From Candolleomyces eurysporus (lineage: Eukaryota > Basidiomycota > Agaricomycetes > Agaricales > Psathyrellaceae): 64,000 bases of DNA. Within the stretch, counting starts at the first letter, position 1. Every line of letters begins with the position of its first letter. The translations under genes and the position numbers were made by a program. Under the pieces are notes generated by a model. It searched no databases. It had not been told where the DNA came from and was given only the letters and a program-made list of their open reading frames with translations. The stretch lies in contig JANBPK010000748.1 in assembly GCA_027579435.1 (NCBI GenBank), positions 124,001-188,000 on the forward strand, given 5' to 3'. Positions 8,625-42,600 of this stretch are shown here, in pieces.

Positions 8625-8750
8625 CTTAGCTTTGCGGCATCTCGGTCAGAAGCGCCTCATGGCAAAACGCAGAAAGCCTCATGCGACTGCGGTTGGGTGT
8701 CTCTCAGCTGTATAAACGCACTCTTGTTAACCCTCAGGAAGCATCATACC
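8625..8750 (+). promoter_or_regulatory. Conserved promoter block of ISG12-like copy A
   Basis: About 125 bases upstream of the ATG match the promoter of copy C (14939-15084). Shared pieces are TTAGCTTTGCGGCATCTCGG at 8626-8645, CTCATGCGACTGCGG near 8688, and a TATA box (TATAAA at 8711) about 40 bases before the start codon. Conservation of spacing and blocks in two genes suggests common transcriptional control, but it may also simply reflect recent duplication. Confidence 0.6.
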
Positions 8751-9526
8751 ATGGCTACTCCACCTGCAGCTGATCACCTCCCGCCTGACGCACTTAGGCA
8801 ACGTCTGTACGAGTGGACCTTGAACTCAAACATCTATCCGCTTTTTAGAGGCCGTTCCGAGCAGTTAGGAAGATGGTTTCTCATCGTGGAGCGGGCCTGC
8901 AGAGAGTCTGATATCCCGCCAACTCAGCGTACAGAGGCAGCCTTACTGCTAATTTCGGAGCAAGCTGAACTTGCCGAGGTCATGCGAGCGCGTGAACAAA
9001 CATATCGGCAAAGGACGAGAGAGGAGTATTGGGACTGGCAGGATTTCAAACAGGATATCCAAAAGGTTGTTGCTGAAGCGGAAAGATGTAATACGCCCTC
9101 CATCCCGTAGGCCTCTTTCCTTGTGTGCTGATGATACATTCGTTTTCAGGGTCGTACATCAAATCCTGGCTTGTGATATCAGCAGGAGTGGGGCTTATCG
9201 TCGGAGGATCCATTGTCTTTCTTCCTGCAGTTGGAACACTTCTTCTCAATGTAGTTGGTTTCACACCTGGAGGTGTTGCTGCAAGTGTGTTTTCTTATTT
9301 CTTTGTCCTGCTCCCCAAATCCGCTGATAAACGCGAAGGGTCTTTAGCAGCTCTGATTCAATCCGTTTTCTATGGCCCTGCCACAGGAGGTCTATTTTCG
9401 ATCCTGCAATCGCTGGGTGCGACCGCGGTGTTGCCTACAGTATGGGAGCTGATTCTTGGAGGGACGGCTTTGAGAGGAGGGCTGGAGATTTTGCGGCGAA
9501 TGATTAGGGATCGCCCTCCGGAGTAG
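8751..9526 (+). CDS. ISG12/IFI6-like membrane protein with N-terminal helical domain, copy A
   Basis: Exons 8751-9087, 9150-9284 and 9339-9526 give about 219 residues. Residues 1-112 are soluble and helical, with LGRWFLIVERACRES, PPTQRTEAALLLI, and a terminal YWDWQDFKQDI. This pattern vaguely resembles retrotransposon gag capsid domains (inference). The C-terminal half is hydrophobic and glycine-rich: GLIVGGSIVFLPAVG, GFTPGGVAA, SLAALIQS and GGLFSILQSLGAT. It follows the layout of the IFI6/IFI27 (ISG12, PF06140) family of mitochondrial membrane proteins linked to cell death in animals. The second intron (54 bases, no stop) could also be translated in frame. Retention of the first intron ends the protein after seven more residues. 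The start follows a TATA box by about 40 bases. Confidence 0.7.
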
Positions 9527-11081
9527 TTTAACTAATCACAAAATCTAGGTGATTGCCTCTGATCATAGTATTCTTAAGTTTTTCGAGCAATTTGTTGGGT
9601 GTTGAGCCATGTAACTCTTCAAGCCTCACGAGCTAAAGTCAATTGTGGAGAGAGCAAGATCATTTGCACAATTTGTCTCGGCTTGACGACAACGGCAAAC
9701 ATTCAGCTTTTTTTNCAACCATGTAAGTTCGTTCGAACCTGATCATACCACTGTGTAGAGGGCAACGTCCCTTGAGAGGTCAGGTCCACACAAGCTATCG
9801 GGTGACAGAAAACAATTGCGCATTGAACGGATACGGACCGGAGCCGCAGGACCAAGGTGATTCAGGGTAAATAAGGACAAGCAGAGGGCCGGAGGCACAA
9901 CGCGTCCAAGCCGAGCCAAACGTGATGAGTCTGTAACCCTTCTCAACCACAGGGACGAGTAGTCAGACTGTATTTGTACCCAATGATATCCCTAAATTTT
10001 CCGTCTCCAGCTTTGTCTTTTCGTCACTTGTTCATGTAGGACGCCTAAGCCTGCCTCGTACCCACTGTGGAACAGAACCTTCACCTAGCACCCTCCGTGG
10101 CCTCCGCCAATGCCCTCTTCCATCCGATACGGCAAGAATGGTGGCTGGCTGTAAGATTCTCGAACTCTCCCCGCACAGGGTGAGTGGAAGGAGCGTCAAG
10201 CCCCATGCAATTGAATACTGACGAGATTATAGACTATCATGATAGATCGGCTCTTAGGAGCAAATTACCACCATGATTGGGTTGAAGAAAGCGCCTCAAG
10301 ACCGATATCCTGAATGCAAAATCGGCACGGAGCCTCGCAGCAATATAGCATAGGCATGGGCAGCGATTGTCTTAACCGCACTGAACTCTTTATGGCCGCT
10401 TCCTCTCAGCTCCATCGTCCTGAATGACCTCGAAGTAACATATCAATGGCTCACCAAAAAATNCCCCTGCTATCGCATCTTTCGCCAATCGACTCAAAAA
10501 CGAACCGACCTTTTTGAATGTCGACATTCCAGAGGCTGGTGAATGGAGATGGTCCTCGGCGAGCCAGATGGCATTCACAGCGCAGGGTCTAACCAATATC
10601 CAAAAAGTCGCCCTGCCCTCGTACTCAGGACGTCGATGGTGAATTTAGAGGTAACGGAGGCGGCGTGGGGAGCCTGAACATCGTATAGTTTTTCAATGAG
10701 ACTTCCAACTCCATCGGCGATGCGATTGGGGGTGTTGGGAAGAAAGAAGAAGAGTGGCCATAACCGACCTCATCATCATCTTAGGAGGGGATGGTGGGGG
10801 CACGCGCTCCTGCACCAGGTCGGCCAAATCCCTCGAAGCAAGCAATGCGAACAGTTTTCAAAGCTGCAAGAGCGACAGAGTGTCGAGCTCGAACTTCGAA
10901 CTTCATTGTACTTCGAGAGCGGAATCGGCGCTCGGAATTGTCCCGATCCGCCGCTCTAGTTCCTCTTTGGGTAGGATCCGAGTCGGCGGCGGCCAGATTC
11001 ACACCCAACAACGAAGAGCTTGTGATAGAGCGCTTGATTGCATCGATCATACCAACTGTGGCTCTTCTGTGTATGACCACC
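9527..11081. other. Intergenic, no supported gene
   Basis: Two N characters after homopolymer runs (9715, and 10463 shortly after an A-run). Several open frames near 10.7-11.1 kb overlap on both strands, but none has a family signature. They lie immediately upstream of the NACHT gene and may include its leader. Confidence 0.45.
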
Positions 11082-13171
11082 ATGTCCAGTCCATCGTACT
11101 TCACAAACGCCAACAACTTCGCTGTCAACAAACTCACCTTCAACAACTACAGCTCGGAAAGCGATGGTCAGTTAATCATTGTAATTCAGTTCACGCAATA
11201 AAGTGATATGTTCGTTATCAATTAGCGTTCCAATATCTTCATAAACACTCTGCTACGAGTGCTATGCACGACTCAGAAGAGCGGTACCCCCCACCCTTGT
11301 GCCACCCAGGTACCCGCGAAGTCGTCGTAGCCCGGATCGAGGGGTGGTACGGTCTCGAAATTCCCCCAAAGAAGAAGATTATGTGGGTTCACGCTCCCGC
11401 AGGCTACGGCAAGACTGCTGTTGCGGGGACGGTTGCGAAGAATTTGGATAGCCGTACACGCGTGAACTTCAACCCCGTAGGAGCAACATTTTTCTTCTGG
11501 AGAACTTCCCCAGAGCGCAACAGTCCTACGCGCTTCATCATCACTTTGGCGTATCAACTCGCCATGTCAATACCCGAGATCGCCCCTCACATGGAGGCCG
11601 CGGTGAAGAGAAATCCCATGGTCCTGAATAAAGCACTCGAAGTACAAGCGGTGAAACTCCTGATCGAGCCGTTCAAATCCCTCGGCAAGTTAGACGAGAT
11701 ACCTCATCGTCTAGTTATAGTTGACGGACTCGACGAGTGCATCAACTCGGATCAGGAGTCGCTCGTCCAGAAGCAGTACGCGGAGGACCAAGAACGCGCA
11801 CAGGCTCGCATCCTCGATCTCATTTACACCCTTCAGTCCCACCACCTTCCACTATGCTTTCTCATCCTCAGCAGGCCGGAACCGTGGATCGAGCGGCACA
11901 TCAGATCCAGGCTGTTTCAAGTCGTGACGGAAACCTTGGACCTTTACCAGGTCGGTGACCATCTAAAGGACGCTGAAAAATTCGTCAGAGTTGAGCTCTC
12001 TCGAATCGCAGAGAAAGTGGACCACCAGAATGAAGAAGGCTCAGACGATGAGTGGCCCTGCGAAGGTATAGTCCACCGGCTCTTGTCGAGGGTAGAAGGA
12101 CACATGCTCTACGCCACTACTATTATCCGACATATCGACGACCCATACGATGATCCGCGTCAACGACTACAAGATATTCTTAACAGCGGGCTCAGTTCTA
12201 CTCCGAACCTCGCTCAATCGACTCCATTTTGCTCCCTTCACGAGCTCTATCGCCAAATCTTACGGTCGTCCCCGCTATCAAATCGGGCTACCATGGTTGA
12301 GGTACTCGAGGAAATACTGGCAGCTAGATACCATTTCCCGACGGGAACTGGGATTACCCTCGCCCTGAAGATCCTCGATCGTATATCCGGCCGTGCTCCC
12401 GGCCGTGGAATTATTGTCATTCGACCCCTCCACGCGGTGATTCGCCTAGCAGACAGCGACACCGCCGTCGACGGCAACTTCTTTTACCATTCTTCTTTTG
12501 CCGAATTCCTGGAGAACGAACCTCGACTCTTACCCGACGTTACTATCGATGTTCAGAAGGGGGTTGGAAGAGTGTTGGCAGGATGTTTGAATTCTATATC
12601 CTCCATCACCATGGATAGCCGGGTTGACGAAGACTATCTTCTGTTTGCGTTGTCGTGGGGCTACTTTTGGCGGGAATGGATGCCCTCCGATAAAGCGGAA
12701 TTTTCATCGCAGCTTAGGGTGCTGCTTGCAGTTGACCTGGCGGCTTCCTTTTCTCAAGAAATCGATCTCAGCGCAAACCATCGACGGCTGTATCGACGAA
12801 GTTCCTTTGTCTGCACCAATGATTTATTTCATCCCACTGCGAACCTCATTGTTGATGGCAAGTCAGTTTCCAACATTGACGCGCCTCTAGCCGAAGATGC
12901 TGTGTCGCACCTAAGATCTGCAGTCGAAGGAGCCTTTCTGCACGTCCTGGCGCCAGAATATTTCAGGCACCACTGTCACGACGACTTTCTCGATACCATT
13001 TCTGGGTCTCTGGCCCATTATTTGGAGGAAATAGACAAATATGGCCCACACGAACACTCCGATGTCTACTGCGCTTTGGAAACACTTCGATTGGAGGAAG
13101 AGGAGCTTTACCTGGAACTGGAATCCTGGTTGCTAGTGTATTGGTGGGAGAAAAGTGTTCAGCAGCCATAG
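11082..13171 (+). CDS. NACHT-domain NLR-like NTPase, no C-terminal repeats
   Basis: Two exons, 11082-11166 and 11226-13171, join in frame to about 676 residues; an ATG three codons earlier (11073) is also possible. The short first exon has the YFTNANNF motif typical of fungal NLR N-termini, linked to the conserved MHDSEERYPPPLCHPGTR segment. The NACHT core has Walker A (HAPAGYGKTAV, about 11393) and Walker B (LVIVDGLDEC, about 11712), then LSRPEPWI (sensor) and a helical region ending in FFYHSSFAEFL. No WD40, ankyrin or TPR repeats follow; the C-terminus is acidic and Trp-rich. Such proteins are signal-transducing STAND NTPases thought to control programmed cell death and non-self recognition in fungi. 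It sits between copies A and C of the ISG12-like family on the same strand. Domain identification is strong; its partner is unknown. Confidence 0.85.
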
Positions 13172-13781
13172 TATCGTAGAACAGGCGCTATATGTATGAT
13201 TATGTGTCCAAACAGTACTAACCCGATACACGAATACCCTACGTACACCGAGAACAACCAAAGGAAGAGGACTGATCATTCATTCGTTGGCATGAGTTTC
13301 GGCAATGAATCCTTACAGAAACGGCGCTGGAACCCTCCAGGCTCCAGATCCGCTTCTGTCGTGGTCACAAAACGATCGTGCACGTCTGTTCATGCGAATT
13401 ACACGATATTTCGTGACATTTATTTTTTNATTTGGACCAGGACAATCAAGTGCAATACGTCACACTCCAGAAAAACGTGAGATGTAGCCAAGGCAGTTTG
13501 ACACTTCTCTTCCAGACAAGGGAGGTGAAACTCTCCCTCATCGTGGTCAGGCCCGAGCTTTTTGGGATATGCTATAGCCAGGCGAAAATCTCAACGACGA
13601 GCTCCGTCGAAAGAATTTTGAACGGACGCACTGGCAGGTGGTTCGGGCAAACAGCGATTGGTCATTGTACGAGCTTGGTCATTGCGCTTAGATATAGGCG
13701 CCTGAAAATTATGGGTGGCTTTGACGTTGTCCCTTGTCCAAACTCATGTGCCACAACATTTGAATACTCGTTCCCTTAAGT
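13172..13781. other. Intergenic with remnant of a repeated block
   Basis: Contains the segment at about 13495-13565, which recurs at 16722-16795, and an N after a T-run at 13429. The region just before 13782 should hold the lost 5' half of pseudogene B. Confidence 0.5.
13495..13565. repeat. Diverged direct repeat, copy 1 (with 16722-16795)
   Basis: About 70 bases shared with 16722-16795, including a TGACACTTC-TTCCAGA segment and GGTCAGGCCCGAGCTT. On the minus strand both copies keep an open frame (LGPDH, EG, KCQT conserved), so this may be the relic of a coding exon. It was probably carried along in the local duplications that made the ISG12-like array. Confidence 0.55.
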
Positions 13782-14171
13782 TTTGGATCGCATCAGTAGC
13801 AGTGGGACTTCTCATGGCCGTCCTCCTCCCTCCTGTTGTATAATGAACGTGATCGGCTTTACGCCCGGTGTTGCCGTGGGTGCGCTTGTTTTCTCTTCTA
13901 TGCCACTCAATCCGCTGAAAAATGTATTGAAGAGTCACTGGCAGCTCTCATTCAATCCATATTCTACGGCGCTTTTATAGGAAGGATGTTTCCATTTTTG
14001 CAAATGCTGGGTGCAACTGCGGCGTTGCCTGCAGTATTAGAGTTGATTGTCGGAAGAACGGCTGTTGGAGCAGCAATGGCGCTGCGAAAACTCTTGACCG
14101 AAAGCGATCTGAGTCACAGAGTAGCTGAGGCTCTTGCTCGCCTCAGGCTGATCATACTTGACCACTTGTGA
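13782..14171 (+). pseudogene. ISG12-like pseudogene, copy B (C-terminal half only)
   Basis: Starts abruptly inside the hydrophobic domain (FWIASVAVGLL) with no N-terminal helical domain upstream. After LLPPVV the sequence lacks several bases relative to the 18.0-19.2 kb gene and runs into a TAA. Downstream it resumes as GFTPGVAVG, a GT-AG intron at the family position, then SLAALIQSIFYG, LQMLGATAALP and an ending ALARLRLI shared with the 18.0-19.2 kb gene. The 3' flank also matches that gene's. Loss of the first exon and the internal deletion make function unlikely. Confidence 0.7.
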
Positions 14172-14938
14172 TTAAATATTCGAAATTTCAATTTCATGGC
14201 TTCATCCGTTTTTCATTTCATCTCAGGCATGATACTCTCAGTAATTAAGAATCGTTATTATATAATCGGGGCTGCTAGCTATATAGTGTAGACCCATCGA
14301 CGATACGCAACCTTCGTCTGCTAATGATGCTCGTTGAATTATCCTATTACCTGTGGCGAGTGGGTGATGCTGCGCACGGCGCATTTTGCCGTCCCCAAGC
14401 CTGCCTCTCCATCTCAACTTACACTCGCGTCATTACTACTTCACTCGTCCCAGAATTGACAAGGTCCAAGACTTCTCGTTTCTGAAGCCTCTCCCTATCC
14501 CAGGCTGCAGCCCGTTTCTTCCTGAGCTTACATTCTTTGGAAAGACGTTGCGAAATTAGCGGCTCCGATTTCCGTGGCCTGTGCGAGGAGGATTCTGCTA
14601 AACGCCGGAAAGTCGATTAATTCGAGAATCTACACATGTACGCAGCAGGCCCAGTTTTAGAATAATTTGACAGCCCCATTGAGCGTAATAGCCGCAATAC
14701 AGTCTCCGGAAGATGACCGAGGATGAATCGATGACGATCAAGCGCCCGGCGCTGCCATTTTCCATTTTGGCGAGCTCTGCATATCGCGAGCTTTTCTACC
14801 GTGACCACACGTTCGAGTCAAACACATCTTGGAAGCCTATTTTCAGCCCATCTCCAGCTAGTCACATTCCTTTCTTTCTTTTATCGTCTGTGATTGATAA
14901 ATAGAAGTGAGTTGGGCTTTTGAAGCTTCGATTATGGC
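14172..14938. repeat. 3'-flank repeat shared with 19170-19810
   Basis: Downstream DNA of pseudogene B resembles downstream DNA of the 18.0-19.2 kb gene in the same order: ATTCGAAATTT blocks, an ATCTACACAT-ACGCAGCAG segment (14628 and 19589), AATAGCCGCAA, and a CTTGGAA-CCT-TTTTC-GCCCAT segment before CACATTCCTTTC. These define one duplication unit of gene plus about 700 bases of flank. A shorter, more decayed version lies at 16985-17065. Confidence 0.65.
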
Positions 14939-15084
14939 TTTAGCTTTGCGGCATCTCGGGGAGAAGCATCTCCACTGAAAAACGTGGAAGACCTCATCCG
15001 ATTGCGGATTAAGCACCTTTCATCTGTATAAAGACACTCTCATTAACCTTTAGGCCACCTCTATCTTCACTCGACCTCACTCCC
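14939..15084 (+). promoter_or_regulatory. Conserved promoter block of ISG12-like copy C
   Basis: Matches the copy A promoter: TTTAGCTTTGCGGCATCTCGG split over 14939-14959, CTCATCCGATTGCGG near 14993, and a TATA box (TATAAAG near 15027) about 57 bases before the ATG. A pyrimidine-rich leader precedes the start codon. Confidence 0.6.
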
Positions 15085-15847
15085 ATGGCTACCCCAGCTG
15101 ATCACTTCTCGCCTGAAGTCCTCAAGCAACGTCTCTATAATTGGTCTTTGTCGACGTCCCGCTATACCCTCTACAAGGGGTTACCTGAGAAGCTGGGAGG
15201 ATGGCTCATCATTGTAGAACGGGCTTGCAGAGAATCCGGTGTTCCACTCACGCAGCGCACAGAGGCTGCCTTACTGCTCATTGTCGGGGAACTTGCTGAT
15301 GTTATGCAAGTTCGCCAACAAACATACCTGGAAAAGACGGGGGAACCTTATTGGGGTTGGCAGGACTTCAAGCAGGATCTTCGTAAAGTCGTCGGAGAGG
15401 CGAAAAGAGGTGATGCGCCTCCCATCATTTAAGGCACACTTACCCAGGCTGATATCTTCTGTACTCATTGCCAGGGTCGTCCTTCAAGTACTGGCTCGCA
15501 TCAGCAGCAGTGGGACTCATTATCGCGGGATCCATCGTCCTCATTCCTGCGGTTGGGATCCTTATCCTCAACGCAGTAGGTTTCACGGCCGGAGGTGTTG
15601 CTGCGGGTGCGCTCTTTCACCCCACAAATCTCGTTTTGTGTCCGCTGAAAACTGTTCAGGCTCGCTGGCAGCTCTTATTCAGGCCGTTTTCTTCGGCGCC
15701 TCTACAGGAGGTATTTTCTCCATATTACAGATGCTGGGCGCAACCGTGGCATTACCTGCAGCGTTGGAATTAATTCTTGGAGGCGCGGCTACTGGAATAG
15801 GGCTGGCGATGTTGCGAAGATTAATTGGCCGCGATCCTGAGGAGTAG
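15085..15847 (+). CDS. ISG12/IFI6-like membrane protein with N-terminal helical domain, copy C
   Basis: Exons 15085-15409, 15475-15606 and 15660-15847 join to about 214 residues with both introns in phase 1. The N-terminal domain has LGGWLIIVERACRESG, TQRTEAALLLI and YWGWQDFKQDL. The second exon carries two hydrophobic stretches around LIIAGSIVLIPAVG and GFTAGGVAAG. The third gives SLAALIQAVFFG, GGIFSILQMLGAT and a short basic-acidic tail RRLIGRDPEE. The intron inside GVAAG-S makes this the cleanest match to the ISG12 signature (GFT, G, AAGS, AA, QS, GG, LQ, GA). Retaining the first intron adds seven residues and a stop. This is the best-preserved single-domain copy. Confidence 0.72.
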
Positions 15848-16035
15848 TAGCCTAGTCGTATTCACCAAATCAGGATGGCCACTTACGAATAGTGTATTAA
15901 GACAGTCCTCCGTAGCACGAACTATTCTCCCTTTCCTGATATAAATCGCCTGAGACACGCGCGCTTGCTTTCGCGTGAGCCACCGAGTTAAACGAGATTT
16001 CGCGATTCCCAAATTCAATGCAAATTCTATGATAT

Positions 16036-16284
16036 TCAGCACTTTGGTACAAAGAGAGGGAGGACGTCCACTGTGACCTCAATGTCGACGTCATCAGTGC
16101 CAAAGGTCACCGTCGCTGCATCAAACCTCGGACTGAAAGCCAAAGACTTAAATGGAACGACCTGCACTCCTCCATGAAATTCTCCCACCTGACCCATCGC
16201 CGTCCAGAGCCAAATATCGTGGAAGGCATTCCGAAAAGTAGTGGCCAAGTCACTGCCTTTGATTTGAACCGCGACATTCCGCAT
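16036..16284 (-). CDS. Possible small protein or terminal exon, unknown
   Basis: Minus-strand frame of 82 codons from an ATG at 16284. Protein-like composition: MRNVAVQIKGSDL, a Trp-containing HDIWLWTAMGQVGEFHGG segment and an alternating hydrophobic-acidic end. The open frame continues upstream of the ATG (IPPGYFRATFALAE) until a stop near 16340, so the ATG may be internal to an exon. I recognise no family. It may be chance. Confidence 0.25.
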   Translation of the reverse strand: MRNVAVQIKGSDLATTFRNAFHDIWLWTAMGQVGEFHGGVQVVPFKSLAFSPRFDAATVTFGTDDVDIEVTVDVLPLFVPKC

Positions 16285-16721
16285 CCCCGGGACTAATGTC
16301 TCAGCGAGCGCAAAAGTAGCTCGAAAGTAACCAGGAGGGATTCAGGAGAGTGTTGAAGGTTAGCTAGTTTTAATCTCTTCCCTTCGGAGAGTCTGAGGTC
16401 CCACGAGAAGTAAAGGTCCCTGTATATAACTTAACATAGTGTGCCGGCGGCCCTTTCAAGCGGAGAGCGACATAGCGAAGTATCATCTCCATCTTGACGA
16501 TCCTCTTAAATCTACCAGAGTTGGACAAGTAGTAGGGGTGGATTCAGAAGTATGTGATCGATAGTTATGACGGTCGAGATAGAGTTTTGAAAGCATAGCA
16601 AACTCTCCTTCGCGATTGCACATTTCGGGTTCCAAATAGACGCTATTTCAGAGTTTAAAACCGCTGGGTGCAATGTGTCGTCAACCAAGAGGAACCAGAG
16701 AAACATAATATATCTCCAAGA

Positions 16722-16795
16722 CAGTCTGACACTTCCCTTCCAGATAATGGAGGTAAAACTTGCCCTCATGGTGGTCAGGCCCGAGCTTCTTGGGA
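16722..16795. repeat. Diverged direct repeat, copy 2 (with 13495-13565)
   Basis: See 13495-13565. In this copy the minus-strand frame extends to a 90-codon open frame (16953-16681), which keeps the idea of a relic coding exon alive. No family is recognised. Confidence 0.5.
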
Positions 16796-17956
16796 TGCTC
16801 GACGGGGAAGCGAGAGAACGAGCTCCTATGGAAGTGCTTTGAAAGGACACGGGTGGATGCAGGAGGATGTACGATTTTTGGAATGGCCAAGTCTTCAGCT
16901 ACACACGAGCGCGGTAGCGACAGTCTTTGGGATAATTTGACAGCCTTGAACATAACACAGGACGGCCCAGCTAAATGTTGCCATTTTTGGAGAATTCGGC
17001 ATCGCGAGCTTTTTGAAACCTATTTGCAGTCCATCCCTCCAACTACTCGCATCCAGATCATGGGCTCTCACCGGCACCACTGGCACGTTCGTTAGGCGCC
17101 GGCCAAGCATTGAGGAAGTCAAAGATGCCTTCCTTTTAAACGCCTCTCTCGCTCCAAGGTGATGGCGTAAATGGGCATGGTGGGGAAAAATCTACCCAGG
17201 GTTCTCGAAAAAGTTCCATCCCGAGCCGGCCTCCCAGAGCGTTACGATATGTAAAAGCCTCGTGCTAGGAGATATACTGTGGCCAATCTAGGTTTAACTG
17301 CGGAGGTTTCTCGATATACCCCTTTCCTCATCTCTCGACTGTTGTACGAGCCATTCCGTTCAACAGGGAAAGCGACTACGCTCATCGATGGAGGTTGAGG
17401 ACGATCTACAGCCACCTATGGAACGTGTTCACGAGTCTGTTTCTTAAACGTAGTTCTGTCGATTGGCTTTATCCATTCAATCGGATGGGTCACTGGACCT
17501 TTATGCCGCACGACGAGCCGTACCATATGATAACAAGCTGGCTGCCTGACTGCACAAACACTGCTAGATTGTCGGCTAGCCGACACGAGCCCAATAACCA
17601 TCCCTCAATTGCGTAAAATACAGTTCAAAATGACATACAGTCTGCTCTCAATTAGGGCAAAATGTGCTCTGTGGGTCCCAAGTGGGTGCTCTACACATGG
17701 TGCAATGGGGCTTCGATCTTCCCCTATTGTGACGCATGGTCTGATCGTGGCGTGCGTGCTGACTCGGTGAAACTCGAATGGCCATTTAAACTCGAGGGCA
17801 ATAAGAATTTGCGCCTAGGGCACCACCCACACATCCCAGCCTCATTCACCATCCCCGAAATTCCATCGTTAAGCTGCTGCTTCCGATGGCGGGTATAGGT
17901 GAGTCGCGGATGTTTGGTTTGAACCATCTAGAGGCTAACATTCCCGGACTGGCCTG

Positions 17957-19169
17957 ATGGAAGAGAGACGACTGCATAGGGAGCTGTTGCTCTACGTTAA
18001 TGCCAACTCCATCGATCTGGCGCTGAATGAGCGGTCGCTCCAGGATTTGACTCAGTGGTTCTCTCGCATCGAGGGAGCGTGCCGGGCGTGTAATTTCCTG
18101 GACGGTCACTACGCGGAGGTAGCACTCCTTTTTATCGAATCGGAGGACCTGGCCGAGGCGATGCAAGAGAGGAGGCAGCAATACCTGGACCGCACAGCAC
18201 ACACATATTGGATTTGGGAAGACTTCAAAGAAGAAATTCGCAGAGCTACTCAAGAGACAGACAATCATCGTGAGTATTAGCGTATATGCGATCACTGACT
18301 TGTCTTGACATCTAACCATTACGATAGCACCCCCCAACACCACCGTAGCCACGGCTCCTCCATCTGATCACTTCTCGCCTGACGATCTCCAGCAACGTAT
18401 TTACAACTGGACCTTAAGGTCGGGCCTCTATCCGCTTTTTAAAGGGCGCTCCCAGGATTTAGGAAGATGGTTTCTCATTGTGGAGCGGGCCTGCAGAGAG
18501 TCTGGTATCCCACCTACTCAGCGTACAGAGGCGGCCTTACTCCTGATATTTGGGGAAATTGACCTTGCCGAGGCCATGCGAGCGCGTCAACAGGTATATT
18601 TGCAAAGGACGGGAGAGGCTTATTGGAGCTGGCAAGATTTCAAGCAGGACATTCGCGACGTTGTCGCTGAAGCAGAGCGAAGTAATGAGCTTCCCATCTT
18701 GTAGGAAAAAAAACCTTCTTACTGATTCTCTACTCGTTGCCTGCCAGGGGCGTCCCTCAATTTTTGGGTCGCATCGGCAGCAAAGGGGCTTCTCATCGCG
18801 GGAGCGATCGTCCTCATCCCTCCTGTTGGAACCCTTCTTCTCAACGCAGTCGGCTTCACACAGGCAGGTGTTACTATGGGTGCGCTTCTTTTCTCCCCCG
18901 TGTCACTCAATCCACTGAAATCCGTATTAAAGGGTCGCTGGCAGCTGCCATTCAATCCATTTTCTACGGCGGTTCTACGGGAGGGATTTTCTCCTTTTTT
19001 NCAAATGCTGGGTGCAACCGCGGTGTTGCCCGGAGCGTTGGAGTTGATTCTCGGAGGAACGGCTGTTGGATTAGGAGTGATGCTGCAAAGACTCTTGGCC
19101 AACGGAGATATAAGTCATACATTAGCTCAGAGTCTTGCCCGCCTCCGGCTGATAACTAACTCTGGGTGA
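17957..19169 (+). CDS. ISG12/IFI6-like membrane protein with two tandem N-terminal helical domains
   Basis: Exons 17957-18269, 18328-18681, 18748-18879 and 18933-19169 join to about 344 residues once the N at 19001 is dropped. The total is then divisible by three. Exon 1 encodes a diverged helical domain (LTQWFSRIEGACRACN, LAEAMQERRQQYLDRT, YWIWEDFKEEI). Exon 2 encodes a second, closer to copies A and C (LGRWFLIVERACRESG, YWSWQDFKQDI). Exons 3-4 encode the hydrophobic half: GLLIAGAIVLIPPVG, GFTQAGVTMG, SLAAAIQSIFYGGSTGG, LQMLGATAVLP, ending ALARLRL-like. The first intron (GTGAGT...ATAG) joins the domains in phase 1. Read separately, exons 1 and 2 look like two genes, but splicing phases agree. 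The start could lie upstream. It shares its 3' flank with pseudogene B. Confidence 0.62.
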
Positions 19170-19887
19170 CCGCTTGTGACTGCATATTCGAAATTTTAAT
19201 CTCATCATCGGCTTCATCTATTCCTCATTTCATCTTAGGCCCACTGACTATAGTCACTGAGCAACGTTAGCGATCCGGCGCATTGTTCGGCCAGCAGCCT
19301 CAAGAGCCACATTGTTCACGTCTTGCATCCCCGGGGGCCATACTTACCATGGTGACATTTCGGCTTATTTTTATGAGTTACCGACCGCAACTTAGAGTCA
19401 TTATGAAATCGTTGGAGCTGCCAGCTAACAATGCTCGCTGAATTGATGTGAAGTTATGACACGGAACGACCCTTAAGTTGGATTTCGACGAAGAATTCTT
19501 TGAGACTCAGCCGTGGTGCAAATTGTTGGATGAGATGTAAATAATGGATTGAGGAACGATTCTACTAAACACCAGGATGTTTCGAGGATCTACACATACG
19601 CAGCAGGGACAGTTGACAGCTCCATTGAGTATAATAGCCGCAAGACAGTGTCGGGACGATGACGATCTCGGTGATGCCAGCTCGGCATCTCGCGAACATG
19701 TCTTTTTCAGGCACGACGGGCGACCACACGTCAAACACCTCTTGGAAACCTCTTTTCGGCCCATTTCCAACTACTCACATTCCTTTCCTTCTTTTGTAGT
19801 CTGTGGTTGTGAATTAGAAGTAATTTTGGCCCCCTCTTTTTATTCCGCCAACACGCTGATTTGTTTCTTCTAGTTACGACCGCGTCA
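19170..19887. repeat. 3'-flank repeat shared with 14172-14938
   Basis: Companion of the repeat downstream of pseudogene B; homology fades near 19810. In the 14 kb copy the repeat is followed by the promoter of copy C. Here it is followed by unrelated DNA, so the array ends at this point. Confidence 0.6.
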
Positions 19888-21650
19888 ATGAATTCCGGGC
19901 AGAGCCCGCACTCGCCTTCCGTTAATCGTAGACACAAGGAAAGAGGGTGAGGCTACAATCCATTGTAACGCATTCTATCCAACCCTAACATTGCTCCTAC
20001 GTTGCAGACTATCTCGCCGGGCAGACGACTGTGAGCCCGCAGACCCCGCCAACACCGTCACCGACCGGCTGAACAATGCCCTCCGCAATGGCGGGGCTGG
20101 CTACACCCTGAGACTCTGTCCCAACCAACGATATTTCATCCAAGCACCCATATTGTTCACGCAGCCAAACCAAGAGATTAGCACGGTTGGGTACCCGAAG
20201 GGAGATGAGCGGGCAATGTTGGTCGTATCAGGGCCTGTCGCCGACGGAAAGGGGCACACTGTTGCTATCGACGGGACGTGCAACGACTGCGATGGTGTGA
20301 AGCTCAGGAATATCCAGGTGCGTGTGTATTTCGAAAAAAAACGCGAGTGTTCTGGTGCTCACCGGCGTTCCAGATTGACGGTACTCGAGGGGACGCCTCG
20401 CCGACCGACGGGGGCCGGGAACATCGAAATGGGCGGAGACAACTCTAACCAGCTCATCGAATACGTGCGGTCGTTCAACCCGCGCTCATGGACGTGCCTG
20501 CACATTGCCGAGGGTCCCCTAACGTGCAACAATGTAGTTGTGCAGAACAACGACCTTGGCCCGTGCGGTGTTGATACATTCCAGCAGTGGGCAGATGGGA
20601 TCAGCATCGCGTGCAGGAACAGTGTCGTGCGGGATAACATGATTGAGGGCGCGACGGACGGCGGGATTGTCGTGTTTGGCTCGCCCGGGACGCTCATCGA
20701 GAACAATACGATTTGGGTGCTCAACGTGCGTCTTTCTCCCTCCTCCCCCGTTTCCTTGTGACCTTGTTCTAAATTTATCTTTATCTTTCTATTCTTATCT
20801 CGTCCGGTACGGTGCCCTCGCCGGATAACAGCAAACCCTCTTGGGCGGTATCAACCTCGTCGACTACAACCCCTTCAGCGGCGACTACACCAACACCGTC
20901 GTCCGCAACAACGTCATTCTCGGCGGGTTCGCCAACGACGGGCAGACAGCCTCCGACACCCGCGGTTCCAACTATGAGAGCGCCATCATCAAGATCGGGA
21001 TTGCTATAGGCCCACGGACGTGGTTCGGCGACCGGTTTGGCCAGAACCGCAACCGCGGCGGTGTCGTGCAGAATAACCAGCTCGGCGGAGCGTTCAGCTA
21101 CGGTATCGCCGTCACCTCTGCTGATGATTTCACGATTACGGGCAACACTTTGGTGGCGAATACGACTTTTATTGGGGCGAAGGGACCGAATTGCTCTGAT
21201 ACTGACCACGTGCCGACGCCTGGTCCGTGGATTGTGGATTGGGCGACGGTGGGGACGGATATGAATGCGGGGAGCGGGAAGATGCAGGGTGATTTTGTGG
21301 GCATATCGGATGGGGATAGTTTGACTTGTGTGTTGCCACCGAATGGTGGGGATTTCTGGCCGTTTGGCTCGAACCCCTCGAACTCGAGCAGCAGCAGCGG
21401 CTCTGGCAGCGGTAGTGGGTCAAACAGTGGGAACAGCGGGGGTGGTGGTGGTGGTGGTGGTGGTGGTGGAGGTGGTAAAGGTGGGAATGCAGCGGGTATT
21501 GGCGTTGGCGTTGTCGTTGCTCTTTTGGCCGTTGGGGTCATTGGATTCTTTGGAAGACGGTGGTGGATGAAGAAGCAGGAGGATAAAGCGCATTATAATG
21601 CGGCGAGAGAGATGGCCCAGAGGTCGGGGTATACGCAGAGGCTTGAGTGA
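19888..21650 (+). CDS. Right-handed parallel beta-helix (pectin-lyase-fold) protein with C-terminal membrane anchor
   Basis: A proposed first exon 19888-19946 joins in frame to 20008-20317. Later exons are 20374-20725 and 20832-21650. The body has spaced strand repeats typical of a parallel beta-helix: IEYVRSFNPRSWTCLHIAEG, NNVVVQNNDLG, NSVVRDNMIEG, GTLIENNTIW, NTVVRNNVILGG and FTITGNTLVANT. The C-terminus has a Ser-rich linker, a poly-Gly run encoded by GGT repeats (about 21438-21476), one membrane helix (GVGVVVALLAVGVIGFF) and a basic tail RRWWMKK. No catalytic residues can be assigned. A +1 shift is needed at the G-run 20410-20414: after the 20318-20373 intron the expected IDGTRGDASPTDGG leads into NIEMGGD only if one base is dropped. 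No clear signal peptide is seen in the proposed first exon, so the true start is uncertain. Confidence 0.65.
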
Positions 21651-27789: not shown

Positions 27790-30700
27790 CTAATATACAG
27801 GAGACTCGGAGAAATATCGATATTCATAAGTGTAATGACGTGCAATCATCTTGCCCTCGATCTTCAACCCCCTAACATCCACATCCTTCCTAGCCAAGAG
27901 GAGACGAAGAATCCTCTTATACCCATACCATACTGCCAACGACAGCGCCGTGTCTCCGTTCCCGTTTCTGGTATTTATATTGACGCCTGGGGAAGCTAAA
28001 ACTGTCCTGACCACTTCCTCGTGTCCTGAATTCACCGCGAGAGTCAACGCGCTATTCCCATCCTTGTCACGGTAATTCGAGTCGACGCTGGGATTGGAGA
28101 GGAGAAGTCGCACAATCGACTCCTGTCCATAAAATGAAGCCCAGAGGAGCGCCGTCCGGCCGAACTTGCAATCGACGATATTTGGGGAGACTTGCCAATT
28201 GGTGAGTTGGAAGAAGGAAAGGAAAGTCTCTTCATCCCCGCTTCTGGCTGCACAAATGAATAGGTTGCAGCCGCAATCAGCAGTGTCGTGGAAATCTAAG
28301 TTGCTGCGGAGGGGCGACGAAGTGATTTGGTTGACGGTGTCGAAGTACAATCGATGTGCGGCAGCGAGAAGTGCGGTACCATGGGTTGGGCAGCGAATCG
28401 TCAGGTCGGTGTCGGGTCGAGCAAGAATGCGATCGAGGATGTTATGCCGTCGCAGGAAGGACCCCACAATAAGCGCTGTACATCCGCAACGGGCCTGCGA
28501 GTTGATATTGATACCACGATGGGATAGAACCACTTCCGACATTCCAAGATTGCCGACCCTTACGCAGTAGACAAGGATGGGGTCTCCTTCTCCGAAGGCA
28601 AAGTCTCTTATGATGACTTTTCGGTAGGTGTCCTGTCGGGAGATAGGGCCATTCAAGAGACCGACATCGTAGTGGCCCGTTCGCCTTGGTGCGAGGCGAC
28701 CAAAACAGTTAGAATGATGGGGATCGGGAAGGGCTGGAATTGGTCCTGTTCCCATGTAAGGGCTCTCCTTTAGCCAGCAGTACCTTTCGCTAAACCTGCC
28801 ATATTTGCGACGAATGAAAGAGGAACCATGAAAGCACTCCTCCAATTCCCTACGGTTGTATGCATGTTGGTCAATATCAATATCGGCGCAACCCTCGATG
28901 AGCTGAGCTACACCACGTCCCCAACCAGCTTGAACAGCGACCATCAGCGGGTGATACTTGCCAGCATTGACGTTAATCCCTTTTGTCGAGAGGAGCCAGG
29001 AAACAATTTCCTCCTGACCGCGATAGCAGGCGGCTGCTAGCGCTGTGTATCCGTCGATGGCTGGAATATTGGGATCGATCCTGGGATGACTGAGGAGGTT
29101 CTTGACAACCACAGGAGATCCTCGAAGGCAGACAACAACCAGAGCAGGCTCCCCTGCGTTGGGGTTGATACCGGGTACATCAAGCAGGAGACGGACAACA
29201 TCAGCATACCCTGCGCGGGACGCTGCTGTGAGTGCAGGAGCATAATCCATCGTGCTGTCACAGTGCTCCAAAAGTGCTTTGACCACGTCGATGCTGCCTG
29301 CTTCTGCTGCCCGGCGGAGTAGATCTGGTTCTTTCCGAATTGCATCGGGTGATGCTAGGAAGATCGATGTCACCAACTTGAATACCCCTGGAAAGAGTGT
29401 GATCCTATGACCTTCCAACAACAGCGCCAGGGCAGATTCGCCTCTTTCGTTCAGCACGTTGGGGTCAAGGTCCTTCGTCTCCAGCAACAGCGGTAATATC
29501 TCCTGCCAGTTGTAAGCATGAGCAGCAACGTGCAAAGGAGTGCTGTGGATCTCGGGTGCAAGAGTGGGAGGGCACCAGAACATCTCCGAGGAGAGTTGGA
29601 ACCCGGGCATGAATAATTGAGGGTCCCAAGACTCATTCGAGGGGGGATACCGAAAAGTAAAAATTGCGTGACCGGCTTCAAGGGCAAGGGTTTGATGGCC
29701 TACATGAGCACTGCCTTGGCTGAGTCTACCGCTGACGCTGATATCTGGGTGGCATAGCAGTGCCTGGACAACCTCGGGTGGGCCACGTTGACATGCAAAA
29801 AAGAGGGCAGTTGGCCTGCAAGTTTGGCAGTGCCATCCGGGTCCGGCGTCCTGAATGTTGACGTTGGTGTGACGATGAGCCAACAGGATCTTGACAATTG
29901 CGACGTGACCTCTGCAGATTGCCACAATGAGTGGTGGATGCCTACCAAGGTTCACGTCAATGTCACCCCATGCAAGGAGAGTTTGGACTAGTGGCATGGA
30001 TCCACTGTATGACGCTGCCGAGAGTACCGTCCAACCCTCCTCGGTCACATTCGCATCTACCCCATACGTCGGCTGAAGAAGTATCCGGACAATCTCGTCG
30101 TGGCCACGAAACGCTGCCCGAATCAAGGGGGAAGCCTTTCCAGCACAGGGTTTGATTTCGGGATGGGCAAGTAGCATGTGGCAAATGCTTTGATGATTGT
30201 TCCATGCTGCGTGAGTGAGAGGTGTCCAGCCGCGCTCATCTTCCATATTCACATTGATATCTGGTTGTAAAAGGAGAGCCTGCACTGCTGCGCCCCTGCC
30301 ACCCCGACATGCTGCAAGTAATGTCACCGAATCCCCACAGGTGTGCTTGATCACGGGTAGGAGAGCGTTGACGATATCATGATGTCCTCTCTCTGTGGCC
30401 GACACAAGACTGCGCGGTGGCTGGGAGCCAAAAATCAACCCGGGGACTGGCGAATTGATGGCCCAAGGTTCGCGCAAAACTGAAGCTTTGTGGGAAAGGA
30501 GGAGCGAAACGATGTGTGTTTGACCTGCGTGCGCGGCACTATCGAGTGCTGTCCCCCAAAATCCATGATATGCATTGATGTCAACATATCGGAGAGCCAG
30601 CTCTACGATTGCTGAGTGCCCATGCATTGCCGCTCCGAGAAGAACTTCCAGCTGCATCCTTAACCTTTCAGGTTCAAGACCGCCGTGGACTAGTCTGGAG

Positions 30701-33457
30701 AAGGTTTCTTCAAGACCCAAACGTGCGGCGACTTCGAGGCAGAGATGGATATCATCAGCAGTAGCATTGGCGAGAATCTGTTGATGTGATAGGAGAAGTT
30801 TCGACAGGGTGTCATTCTTTGCAACAGACAGTGCTGTCCCTAAGTGCGTGCAGCGTGCATGAATGTTGATATCAGGGTTGGATAGAAGAAGTGCAACGAT
30901 ACTGAGTTGGCCGGTGGACGATGCGAGTAAAAGAGGGGTACAGCCACAGATGGGGCCTAAGTGGATATCAACCTCCTTGCGTGTAAGGAGGGCTTCAACG
31001 GCTTTGGGACGACCCAGACGAGATGCATAGCATAATGCAGTATATCCAGTGAAGGGGTGTTGCGCATTGACCTCGATTTCTGGGTTGGAGAGGAGTTGTC
31101 GAATGAGGGATAGATGTCCTTCGGCGGCGGCCCACGACAGTGGCGAACGTGTACATGTTTGAACATTCAGCTGGATGCCTGGGCATGATGCGAATAATTC
31201 GACTATCTTCGCGTGACCGCCGTTGAATGCGGAAGCCAGTGCAGTGCACCCGCACGCGGCTCTTGCGTTGAGTGTTTCAATGTCATCTGGGTCGATGGAC
31301 AACAGGAATTTGACCATTTCTCCATGATTGAATACTGAGGCCAACATGAGAGGGGTTCGACCATCAAGGCTGGTATCTCTGACGGACATTTCGGGCCATC
31401 TCTCCAGGACAATCTTAGCAGAATTGACATGCCCGCCAATCGCAGCAAGATGGAGGAGAGTGAATCGCTGCTTTGGAGTGACCCCACATTTGGGCGCCAT
31501 GCCCATCAAGAGATCGGTGAGGCCATACAATATGGCAAGCTGGTGAGGCCCAAGCTCATCGAAATAGTCGCCATACTTCCAGGGATAGGCCAGAGGTCTT
31601 GAAACAAATTGGGATACATGAGGCGACAGCCCCTTTTCTCCGTTGGAAAGTTGAGAGTGTGTGCCCCAGTGATGGTAAGCATAGCTGAGGAAGGGTCGCA
31701 AGGGATCATCCGTGACAAGCGAAGCATCGCTTCCGTTTATGTAATTGCGGTAACAGAGTTGGGAGGATAGGTAGATGACGCAGATGGACGACAGAAATGT
31801 ATGAGGCGCAGGGAACCACGGCAAGCATGCTTCCTTGAGAAAATCATGCGCGGTATAATCTAAACATAATTAATATTGAAATTGTCTAAACACAGAAATG
31901 GGCACTTACGAATAAGTCTGAGGCCTAGGGTTGCAGAAAGAGCGGCAGGGTCATAGGATCTGGAGACGAGGCCGCAGCAAACATCAAAAATGAATTCTCC
32001 GGGTACGATGTCATCTTCATCGAACGTTCCGAGGTCGGGATTGGTGGCTAAAGCATACTGCAGCTGGTTCATCGGCAATGGTACGAGGGCATAGACCAGC
32101 CACAGGATCGCTCTCTTCGCTAAAAGAACCTCTGCCTCGCTTTGAGCATCGATGCGCTTCAAGGTGTGCCTATAAAGATCATTGATGGTGGTCGGAAGAG
32201 TTTCAAGAGCATTCATCAAAGCCCGAGGGGTCATGCTGCCCTTCAATGCTTCGAGTTGCAGGCTTGCGACCAGGAACCTGGAAGTCGGGCACCACGCGTG
32301 AGTACGCCACGTACATAAAACGACAATTGTAATCACTTACATGCCGCCGGACTTTTCTTTGATAGCTTTACAAATGCGGTGCTTCTCACCATCCTTCCCA
32401 GCAAGCATTGTATGAAGTCGAGGCATTTGAGCGATCTTCTTCTCGACAAACAGCTCTATGTCTTCGTTTCGAGCCTCGATATTGATGTTGGCAGCATCAC
32501 GAACCAGATATTCGAACGTATTCAGAGGGCGCGACATAATTAATGTGCGTGTGTTGGATGGGAGAGTGTTGATTTCCTCGAGCAGCTGTATCTTGACATC
32601 TTCCTGCGCCTCGTCCAAGCCATCCAATACAATATAGACTTTCTCAAACCCGGTGCAGATGGCGGAGAGCAACTCGTACAGCTCTGCCTCCGATGGCGAA
32701 GTATCCTGCCTTTGATGGATAGCGAACATCTTGCTGACATATCGGAGGGTTGCTGGATCGTACTCCAAGAGCTGTCGAATCCACGCAGCAAGGAACTGGG
32801 AGGTGGGATATTTCTCCGTGTACCGACAGTAGGCGAATATTACAGGCACTCGCTTCTGAGAGGAAAATTCTTTTTCGAGATGGTCCACGATGATTGCCCT
32901 GAGTTTATAATGAGAGACGAGAGGCATCACAAAAGCATTCGAACCACGAACGAAAGGATTGTCTTGCCAGCGCCCGCTAGTAAACCACGGCAGATCAACG
33001 ACCATTCGGAGCATGACGGTATTGAAAGTAACTCACGCTTCCCGGTCCCCCATAAAACCTTGAGGTTGTTTCGCGTCCAAAGACGATATTCGTGGGTCTG
33101 CGTGAACCAAAGGCCTGTGCCCGGGGTCCTCTTTGCAAGCGCTTCCGAATGGATGTTCCGAAAGCTGGTTGTTGTCAACCAGTCAGTGACTCTTCGAAAT
33201 AATCCGTCATCTATTCAAAATAAGTGCACTCGTCAGATAAGCTTGAGGGGAGACCCGGCGAGCCTACCATTGTTCTCCGTATCAATGGCGCTGGCATTCA
33301 CAGAGATATTGCAGTTCTTGTATACATTCATGTTCTTCCCAGCGGTTCGAATGCTGACATTTTCGATCCCAAAGTTGCTCGCGCCCGCAAAAGCGGCACG
33401 GACAGAATCTAGAGAACTGTCGTGAGCGAAAGGGAAACATTGCAACGGGAGAATCAT
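27790..33457 (-). CDS. NACHT-ankyrin NLR 1
   Basis: Exons on the minus strand: 33457-33268, 33210-33037, 32976-32952 (a 25-base micro-exon), 32898-32341, 32277-31910 and 31859-27790, about 1794 residues. Exon 1 has FAGASNFGIENV, the fungal NLR N-terminal motif. Exon 2 gives TDWLTTTSFRNIHSEALAKR. Splicing then creates Walker A, LWGTGKPGAGKTIL, across exons 2-4. Walker B is VYIVLDGLDEAQ and the sensor LIMSRP. LIHYTAHDFLKEAC marks the winged-helix end. From residue about 550 ankyrin repeats (RTPLMLAS, TALCYASRLG and similar) run almost to the C-terminus, which ends HYTYEYRYFSESPVY. STAND proteins of this type are presumed intracellular recognition switches in fungi. The reading frame is intact. 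An overlapping upstream ATG at 33488 is conserved in the copies. Confidence 0.88.
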
Positions 33458-39639: not shown

Positions 39640-42600
39640 CTAATATACAGGAGACTCGGAGAAATATCGATATTCATAAGTGTAATGACGTCCAATCCTC
39701 TTGCCCTCGATCTTCAACCCCCTAACGTCCACATCCTTCCTAGCCAAAAGAAGGTGGACAATCCTATTATACCCATACCATACTGCCAACGACAACGCCG
39801 TGTCCCTGTTCCCGTTTCTGGCATTTATATTGATGCCTGGGGAAGCTAAAACTATTCTGACCACTTCCTCGTGTCCTGAATTCACCGCAAGAGTCAACGC
39901 GCTATTCCCATCCTTGTCGCGGTAATTCGAGTCGACGCTGGGATTGGAGAGGAGAAGTCGCACAATCGACTCCTGTCCATAAAATGAAGCCCAGAGGAGC
40001 GCCGTTCGGCCGAACTTGCAATCGACGATATTTGGAGAGTCTTGCCAATTGGTGAGTCGGAAGAAGGAAAGGAATGTTTCTTCATCCCCACTTCTGGCTG
40101 CACAAATGAACAGGTTGCAGCCGCAATCAGCGGTGTCGTGGAAATCTAATTTGCTGCGGAGGGGCGACGAGATGATTTGGTTGACGGTGTCGAAGTACAA
40201 TCGATGCGCGGCAGCGAGGAGTGCGGTACCATGGGTTGGGCAGCGAATCGTCGGGTCGGTGTCGGGTCGAGCAAGAATGCGCTCGAGGATGGTATGCCGT
40301 CGCAGGAAGGACCCCACAATAAGTGCTGTACATCCGCAACGGGCCTGCGAGCTGATATTGATATCACGATGGGATAGAACCACTTCTGACATTCCAACAT
40401 TACCAACCCTTATGCAGTAGACAAGGATGGGGTCCCCTTCTCCAAAGTTAGAGTTTCTTATCATGGAATCATTGACGTTCCATCGGGAGATTGGGCCATT
40501 CAAGAGACCGACAGCGTAGGGGCCCTTTGGCCTTGGTGCGAGGTGACCAAGACAGTTGAAAGGATGGGGATCGGGAAGAGCTCTGTATTGGATTATTCCC
40601 CAGTAAGCACTGTCCTTTAGCCAGCACTTCTTTGCGGAAAATTGGTTATAGGAAGGATGTGAAAGCGGATAGTAAAGGCACTCCTCCAATACTTCTTGGT
40701 TGTAGGCATATTGATCGACATCGATATCCGTGCAACTTTCGATCAGTTGTGTTACAACATGTTCCTGACCAGCTTGAGCAGCAACCATCAGCGGGTGATA
40801 CTTGCCAGCGTTCACGTTGATCCCTTCTGCCGAGAGGAGCCAGGAAATGATCTCTTCCTGACCGCGATAGCAGGCGGCTGCTAGTGCCGTGTATCCTTTG
40901 ATGGTCGGAGTATTGGGATCGATCTTGGGATGATTGAGGATGTGCTTGACAATCACAAGAGATCCTTGAAGGCAGGCAACAGCCAGGGCAGGCTCCCCAG
41001 CATTGGGGTTAATCCCAGGTACATCAAGCAGGAGGCTGACAACATTGGCATGCCCTGCACGGGACGCTGCTGTAAGTGCAGGAGTGTAATCCATTGTGCT
41101 GTCATAGTGCTCCAATAGTGCTTTGACTGCATCAATGTTGCCTCCCATTGCTGCCCAGTACAGTAGAGCTGGTTCTTTCCGAATTGCATTGGGTGATGCC
41201 AGGAAAATCGATGTCACCAATTTGAATACCCCTGGAAAGAGTGTGATTTCATGATGGTTAATGACAGTGTTTTGCAAAATCAGCAGCAGAGCAGATTCGC
41301 CTCTCTCGTTCAGCATGTTTGGGTCAATGTCCTTCACCTCCAGCAACAGTGGCAGTATTTCCTGCCAGTCCTCAGCATGGATAGCAACATGCAAAGGGGT
41401 GGTGTAGATCTTGGGATCGAAAATGGGAGGGGACTCTAAACACCAGAACCCCTCGAGGGATTGAAACGGATAGCAGCCACTGGTAATGGTGTCGATCTTG
41501 GGATCAAAAATGGGAGGGGACTCTGAACACCAGAAACTCTCGAGGGATTGAAATGGGTAGTAGCTACCGGCAGGGGTGGTGTCAATCTCGGGATCGAAAA
41601 TGGAAGGGGAGTCCAAAGAAATGAACCTCCCAAAGGATTGAGACAGACAGGAACTGCCGGTAGGGGCGGTGTAAATTTCGGCATCAGAAATGGAAAGGGA
41701 ATCGGTCGTGGAAAGGGAATTGGTCGAGGTAAGCTGCATTAAGAGTTGAGACACAAAAGTGTGGGTTGAGGTTATCTGCTTGAGGAGTTGAGACACACTA
41801 GTGTAGATCTCGGGATTGAGAATGGGAGGGTAAGCGGTCGAGCAGAACCTCTCGAGGGATTGAGACGGATGGTAACCACCGGTAGGATTGACTTGAGTTT
41901 GATGGCCTACATAAGCGCTTCCTTGGCTGAGTCTGACGCTGACGTTGATATCCGGGTGGCGTAGCAGTGCTTGAACAACCTCGATTGGCCCGCTTCGACA
42001 TGCAAAAAAGAGTGCAGTTGGCCCGCAAGGTTGGCGACAGTCCCGGATGTTGACGTTGGTAGACCCCTGAGCCAATAGAATCTTGACGATCGCAGTGTGA
42101 CCTTTGCAGACTGCCACAATGAGTGGTGGGTGACTACCAAGGTTCACGTCAACGTCGTCCCGCGCAAGGAGGGTTTCTACTAGTGGCATGGATCCACTGC
42201 ATGCCGCTGCTGAGAGTACCGTCCATCCCTCCTCGGTTGCATTTGCATCCATCCCATAAGTCGGCTGAAGAAGCGTCTGGGCAATTTCATGGTGGCCACG
42301 AAAAGCTGCCCGCATCAGGGGGGNAAGCCTTTCCAGCGTGTAGTTGAATCCTGGGATGAGCAAGCAACATATGGAAGATGCTTCGATGATTGTTCCATGC
42401 TGCGTGAGCGAGAGGTGTCCAACCGTGTTCATCTTCCACATTGACATTGATATCCATTTGTAAAAGGAGATCCCTGACCACCGCATCCCTTCCACTCCAA
42501 CATGCTGCAATTAGTGTTGCTGAACCTCCATGATTGCGCATCATTACAGAGAGGAGGGCATCGACGACATCATAGCATCTTCTCCGTGCAGCCAACGCAA

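What the first reader, a model, noticed from the sequence alone, without database searches (positions are those of the whole stretch)
8625..19810. Array of ISG12/IFI6-like membrane proteins with a fused soluble helical domain, around an NLR
Three genes (A 8751-9526, C 15085-15847, and 17957-19169) plus pseudogene B share an unusual fusion. An N-terminal WQDFKQD-containing helical domain is joined to a hydrophobic domain with the GFTxGGVAAGS / LQxLGAT signature of interferon-induced IFI6/IFI27 proteins. The animal relatives act on mitochondrial membranes in cell death. A NACHT NTPase sits inside the array on the same strand. I do not know of a described fungal NLR-ISG12 cell-death module. The functional link is inference from position and families.
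Basis: partly seen in the sequence, partly recalled or inferred. Interest (0 to 1): 0.85.

Follow-up and report, generated by a model that had tools for sequence, protein, structure and literature searches.

The report
Mushroom membrane proteins with capsid-like domain
A mushroom genome carries a small cluster of genes that join a soluble helical domain, which looks like a piece of a retrotransposon capsid protein, to an interferon-type (ISG12) membrane domain; the immune-receptor gene lying among them is probably a bystander.

The parts
8751..9087 (+). Copy A, exon 1: N-terminal helical (Gag-capsid-like) domain, 112 codons + 1 nt
   Evidence: splice model; no Pfam family; AF2 model pLDDT 86.9, five helices
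9150..9526 (+). Copy A, exons 2 (9150-9284) and 3 (9339-9526): ISG12/IFI6 membrane domain
   Evidence: PF06140 32.4 bits, cut-off 29.1
11073..13171 (+). NLR gene (exons 11073-11166, 11226-13171; 679 aa): NPHP3_N/NACHT from residue 78, no effector domain found
   Evidence: nearest paralogues on other contigs
13772..14172 (+). Pseudogene B: ISG12 half only, first part with stops, no N-domain found
15085..15409 (+). Copy C, exon 1: N-domain
   Evidence: same in the annotated protein P0001 of Candolleomyces eurysporus
15475..15847 (+). Copy C, exons 2 (15475-15606) and 3 (15660-15847): ISG12 domain
   Evidence: PF06140 23.0 bits, below cut-off
17886..17898 (+). Copy D, first exon (13 nt, MAGI); upstream copy F and the C988 gene have a like exon
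17964..18269 (+). Copy D, N-domain 1 (closest to that of F: dS 0.47)
18328..18681 (+). Copy D, N-domain 2 (closest to that of A: dS 0.45)
18748..19169 (+). Copy D, exons 18748-18879 and 18933-19169: ISG12 domain, one undetermined base at 19001
   Evidence: PF06140 22.9 bits for the part before 19001
13467..13568 (+). Segment repeated at 16695-16796 (83%): upstream edge of a tandemly duplicated unit
   Evidence: family D7
14667..14917 (+). Holds segments repeated at 19613-19663 (86%) and 19730-19830 (83%): other edge of the duplicated unit
   Evidence: families D8 and D10

Best explanation
This is an agaric multigene family of two-part proteins: one or two copies of a soluble ~100-residue five-helix domain resembling the N-lobe of a Ty3/Arc-type Gag capsid (probably a domesticated Gag piece), joined at a conserved phase-1 intron to a C-terminal ISG12/IFI6/IFI27 domain that inserts into a membrane. 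Likeliest mechanism: the capsid-like domain self-associates or binds a ligand, as capsid lobes and the Arc N-lobe do, and so clusters the membrane-inserted ISG12 domain to change that membrane (stress, death or defence signalling). The NLR among the copies belongs to a subfamily found elsewhere in the genome and most likely sits there by chance. Shown: fusion, ISG12 homology, tandem N-domains, conservation, purifying selection, homology of the N-domain to a domain of another host gene. Supported, not proven: the Gag-capsid fold and origin. Inferred only: oligomerisation, membrane and cellular role.
Confidence: 0.45

Rival explanations
1. Retroelement restriction: the capsid-like domain is a Gag bait that co-assembles with incoming Ty3-type Gag, and the ISG12 domain tethers or poisons the particles at a membrane or signals cell death (a fungal analogue of Drt2/p22 or Fv1, with a membrane effector attached; Fv1 recalled).
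For: Gag-like fold of the relative P0007; the genome carries many gag loci (25 PF03732, 19 PF19259 and 77 PF14223 matches); domesticated or self-encoded capsid domains restrict Ty1-family elements in yeast (PMC10951436 and PMC12530519, abstracts read); tandem N-domains and copy-number growth would fit an arms race.
Against: Similarity to this genome's gags is very distant, whereas Drt2 and p22 come from the elements they restrict (abstracts); dN/dS is low, not raised; the 93% identity of E and P0006 between two species argues against fast change.
Confidence: 0.15
2. NLR-controlled cell-death module: the NLR senses a threat and triggers the ISG12 fusions as membrane executioners.
For: The NLR lies between A and B on the same strand; ISG12 relatives are reported at mitochondria and in antiviral defence (search listing, and recall); fungal NLRs can control pore-forming partners through short motifs, N-terminal on the NLR side (PMC9815663, passages and section 29 read), and this NLR has a short N-terminus, whose motifs were not tested.
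Against: The 68 other listed stretches of its subfamily lie on contigs without ISG12 genes found here; near E/F and at four ISG12 loci no NLR-like match at E <= 1e-3; NLR-rich genome; no effector domain found in the NLR; the cited survey has no mention of ifi, interferon or ISG12 in its main text.
Confidence: 0.1
3. The N-domain is an ordinary basidiomycete helical adaptor with no Gag ancestry, and the proteins are housekeeping membrane-shaping factors; capsid resemblance is a common helical arrangement.
Confidence: 0.3

Closest known systems
ISG12 / IFI6 / IFI27 family (Pfam PF06140)
   Same: C-terminal hydrophobic Gly/Ala-rich domain with GFTxxGVAAGS and QSxGAT signatures; A and 7 of 10 relatives scanned pass the Pfam cut-off
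   Different: A ~100-aa soluble domain, single or doubled, is fused in front; fungal, no interferon system (recalled)
Domesticated Gag capsid proteins (Arc, dArc, PEG10, MOAP1; yeast Drt2) and Ty1 p22/p18
   Same: Predicted five-helix lobe of a relative superposes on them; host-encoded
   Different: Only a lobe-sized unit; attached to a membrane domain; sequence similarity to gag not significant by usual standards
Fungal NLR plus separate membrane effector pairs (HET-S/NWD2 type, recalled; BaMLKL in basidiomycetes, PMC9815663 passages)
   Same: Membrane-active candidate effector next to an NLR
   Different: No shared motif known (not tested), no recurrent linkage seen, ISG12 not mentioned in that survey

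Membership tests
ISG12/IFI6/IFI27 (PF06140) | Match above the Pfam gathering score | tested here: met
   A 32.4 bits (cut-off 29.1); but C 23.0 and D (part before 19001) 22.9 are below it; relatives: 7 of 10 above
ISG12/IFI6/IFI27 (PF06140) | Hydrophobic, membrane-inserting segment | tested here: inconclusive
   Hydropathy (19-residue window, >1.6): A one maximum (2.22 at 119), C five (up to 2.68 at 121), none in the N-domains of A and C; the model of this part is low confidence
ISG12/IFI6/IFI27 (PF06140) | Localisation to mitochondria or ER and effect on cell death or viruses | not testable with these tools
   needs experiments
Gag capsid (Retrotrans_gag and relatives) | Match to a gag Pfam family | tested here: not met
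   No gag family listed for N-domains or fusions at E up to 1 or 10
Gag capsid (Retrotrans_gag and relatives) | Capsid-lobe fold | tested here: inconclusive
Gag capsid (Retrotrans_gag and relatives) | Significant sequence-profile similarity to gag | tested here: inconclusive
   hhalign prob 13% at best; 0 of 150 shuffles reach the score for the Marasmius-type profile, 3 of 200 for all, 17 of 150 for the Candolleomyces type
Gag capsid (Retrotrans_gag and relatives) | Two-lobe capsid within a retroelement | tested here: not met
   The N-domain (one or two similar copies) runs into the ISG12 domain; tblastn with this genome's gag stretches finds nothing in the 88 kb around. Zinc knuckle and pol were not searched for
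NLR-effector module | NLR with an effector or recruitment domain | tested here: not met
   Pfam on the spliced N-terminal 285 residues finds the NTPase from residue 78 and no effector domain; short amyloid-type motifs were not tested
NLR-effector module | Recurrent linkage of NLR and effector genes | tested here: not met
   Found at 1 of 2 fused clusters; 0 of 68 other listed stretches of the NLR subfamily on a contig with ISG12; one genome, capped lists

The most novel reading that the evidence does not exclude
Mushrooms have domesticated a Gag capsid lobe as the sensing or clustering half of an ISG12-type membrane effector: the lobe recognises or co-assembles with retroelement (or viral) capsids, or builds capsid-like assemblies of its own, and thereby switches the ISG12 domain on a membrane; the family grows and reshuffles lobes (one or two per protein) by tandem duplication.
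Probability: 0.17. Interest if true: 0.87.

Novelty: new variant of a known kind. Interest (0 to 1): 0.55.

Why it matters
ISG12 proteins are best known as interferon-induced animal proteins of debated mechanism (recalled, and search listings). A fungal family that carries the same membrane domain with a fused, possibly capsid-derived, domain gives a form with a built-in second half whose job can be tested, in organisms without interferon. If the Gag origin holds, it adds a host use of a capsid lobe, tied to a membrane effector. Ten full-text searches of the open PMC library listed no paper on this fusion; only the listings were looked at, and for the broad searches they show a small part of the papers found.

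Tried and rejected
NLR module: looked for further NLRs near ISG12 genes. A first check with only this NLR as query suggested one NLR in 88 kb; that was wrong, because two ankyrin NLRs of another subfamily lie at about 27.8-33.0 and 39.6-45.2 kb, the nearer one 8.6 kb from the end of D. With pieces of all three as queries, contig 94-124 kb (around E and F) gave only weak matches (E 0.19 at 109958-110197; E 0.49-0.85 in 94-100 kb), and the stretches at the other four ISG12 loci one at E 0.68; ten frames from 94-120 kb scanned with Pfam held no NLR-type NTPase (one F-box-like, one uridine-kinase-like, one DUF7025). These four loci were seen to about 5 kb on either side only.

The N-domain as a known domain: no Pfam match, NCBIfam nothing useful; PDB sequence profiles gave weak, unrelated hits (TIAM, aBAK, T-complex and others). 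DUF6756, DUF3040 and the like at E near 0.1-1 judged chance. A protein search with only the N-part of P0014 found only itself.

Gag by sequence: comparison to gags of the own genome by group gave under 5% probability; restricted to the N-lobe it gave the mixed shuffle results told above (the sub-profile was chosen after seeing the first result, three profile comparisons in all). Folds absent from the VIA lists are not excluded.

Full report
What is there. The window is part of a 313 kb contig of a 65.9 Mb fungal genome; copy C is identical, except for a missing stretch of 17 residues, to an annotated protein of Candolleomyces eurysporus (P0001), so the organism is that agaric or a very close one (Agaricales, Psathyrellaceae). 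A, C and D are spliced genes with the same two introns in phase 1: one at the border of the two domains, one inside the second. The first domain (about 100 residues) is soluble by hydropathy in A and C; the second is hydrophobic. D starts further upstream than reported, with a 13-nt exon, and has two N-domains in tandem, an arrangement also present in C. aberdarensis P0002 (70% identity over 229 residues). B is an ISG12 half with stops, and no N-domain was found there. Direct repeats of 110-300 nt at 60-80% identity link the copies, and flanking repeats (13467/16695; 14667 and 14817/19613 and 19730) show tandem duplication of a larger unit.

Beyond the window. A search of the own genome with copy C gave 23 matches from 20 scored candidates; all N-domain matches among them lie on this contig. 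Upstream, E (contig 104511-105524, with a proline-rich tail) and F (108614-107631, minus strand) are fused genes too. ISG12 domains without a recognisable N-domain lie on C988 and twice on C1053; weaker PF06140 matches lie on C1224 and C1103. The C988 gene shares 5' sequence and a like first exon with D and F and reads as ISG12 only. Synonymous distances suggest that D is a mosaic: N1 nearest to F (dS 0.47), N2 nearest to A (0.45), ISG12 nearer to C (0.51) than to A (0.79).

ISG12 identity. PF06140 is the only convincing Pfam family: A 32.4 bits (cut-off 29.1), C 23.0, D up to the undetermined base 22.9. A profile of the family finds IFI27-like protein 1 (2loq) among PDB sequences over that part (E 0.0021).

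Spread and constraint. An alignment search gave 49 proteins at E <= 1; the best include fusions from C. aberdarensis, Laccaria bicolor, Marasmius tenuissimus and Marasmius sp., and unnamed metagenome proteins. The Laccaria protein also has two N-domains, 69% identical to each other, apparently a separate duplication. E and its C. aberdarensis counterpart are 93% identical. dN/dS between copies is 0.11-0.54 for N-domains (7 of 15 pairs; the other 8 have saturated dS) and 0.12-0.38 for ISG12 parts (5 of 6 pairs); several of the finite dS values exceed 1.5, so these are rough. Both halves are maintained.

The NLR. The gene at 11073-13171 codes for 679 aa; the NPHP3_N match starts at residue 78, and no effector domain is found before it. 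Its relatives at about 50-75% identity (68 other matched stretches listed; one short one at 34%) sit on other contigs, none with an ISG12 gene found here. The genome is full of NLRs: all 150 scored NPHP3_N candidates pass the cut-off, of 1340 first-look candidates, and all 86 listed NACHT matches, of 1132; both are lower bounds. The window alone has two more, with ankyrin repeats, on the minus strand. If between 300 and 1000 NLRs were spread at random, a stretch the size of the A-D array would hold one by chance in roughly 5 to 15% of cases (my arithmetic; the true number is not known). Linkage is thus weak evidence, and around the second fused cluster (contig 94-124 kb) no NLR was found: no match at E <= 1e-3, some weak ones, no NLR NTPase in ten frames scanned. 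PMC9815663, a survey of fungal NLR effectors, has no mention of ifi, interferon or ISG12 in its main text (passages and section 29 read).

Mechanism. Shown: a conserved two-part protein under constraint. Inferred: ISG12 inserts in a membrane, as its animal relatives do (recalled); the lobe-like domain, single or double, supplies binding or clustering. A retroelement-restriction role is an attractive variant given yeast Drt2 and Ty1 p22 (PMC10951436 and PMC12530519, abstracts read), but low dN/dS and the great distance to resident gags speak against a close arms race.

Verdict. New variant of a known kind, interest 0.55.

Noticed in passing
window 27790-33032 and 39640-45240 (minus strand): Two NLRs of another subfamily (NPHP3_N piece plus long ankyrin arrays), 87% identical in the NTPase piece, apparently a duplication.
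   Followed up: partly
C1042:44762-45139 and C547:7998-7619 (L068, L069): A host gene with two near-identical copies carries a domain homologous to the N-domain; no Pfam family for that domain.
   Followed up: partly
window intron 1 of A, C, D (9088-9149, 15410-15474, 18682-18747): Reading through intron 1 gives a stop after a few codons in each copy; the annotated C. aberdarensis protein P0002 ends that way, so a soluble N-domain-only product is possible, or it is an annotation error.
   Followed up: no
P0010 (C. eurysporus annotation of copy F): The public gene model lacks the N-domain exon of F (98% identical over the rest), so public annotation hides the fusion.
   Followed up: partly
window 59993-60745: Open frame with an AbiEii nucleotidyltransferase match (26.1 bits, cut-off 22.5), named for bacterial type IV toxin-antitoxin systems.
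   Followed up: no
window 19892-20761: Beta-helix-like open frame next to the array (24.4 bits, below the cut-off of 25.9).
   Followed up: no
P0048, P0029, P0044: ISG12 domains elsewhere carry other partners (SAM and RING by recalled meaning of the Pfam numbers; a Rhizophlyctis protein with an unnamed N-terminal half), so PF06140 is a modular membrane part.
   Followed up: no
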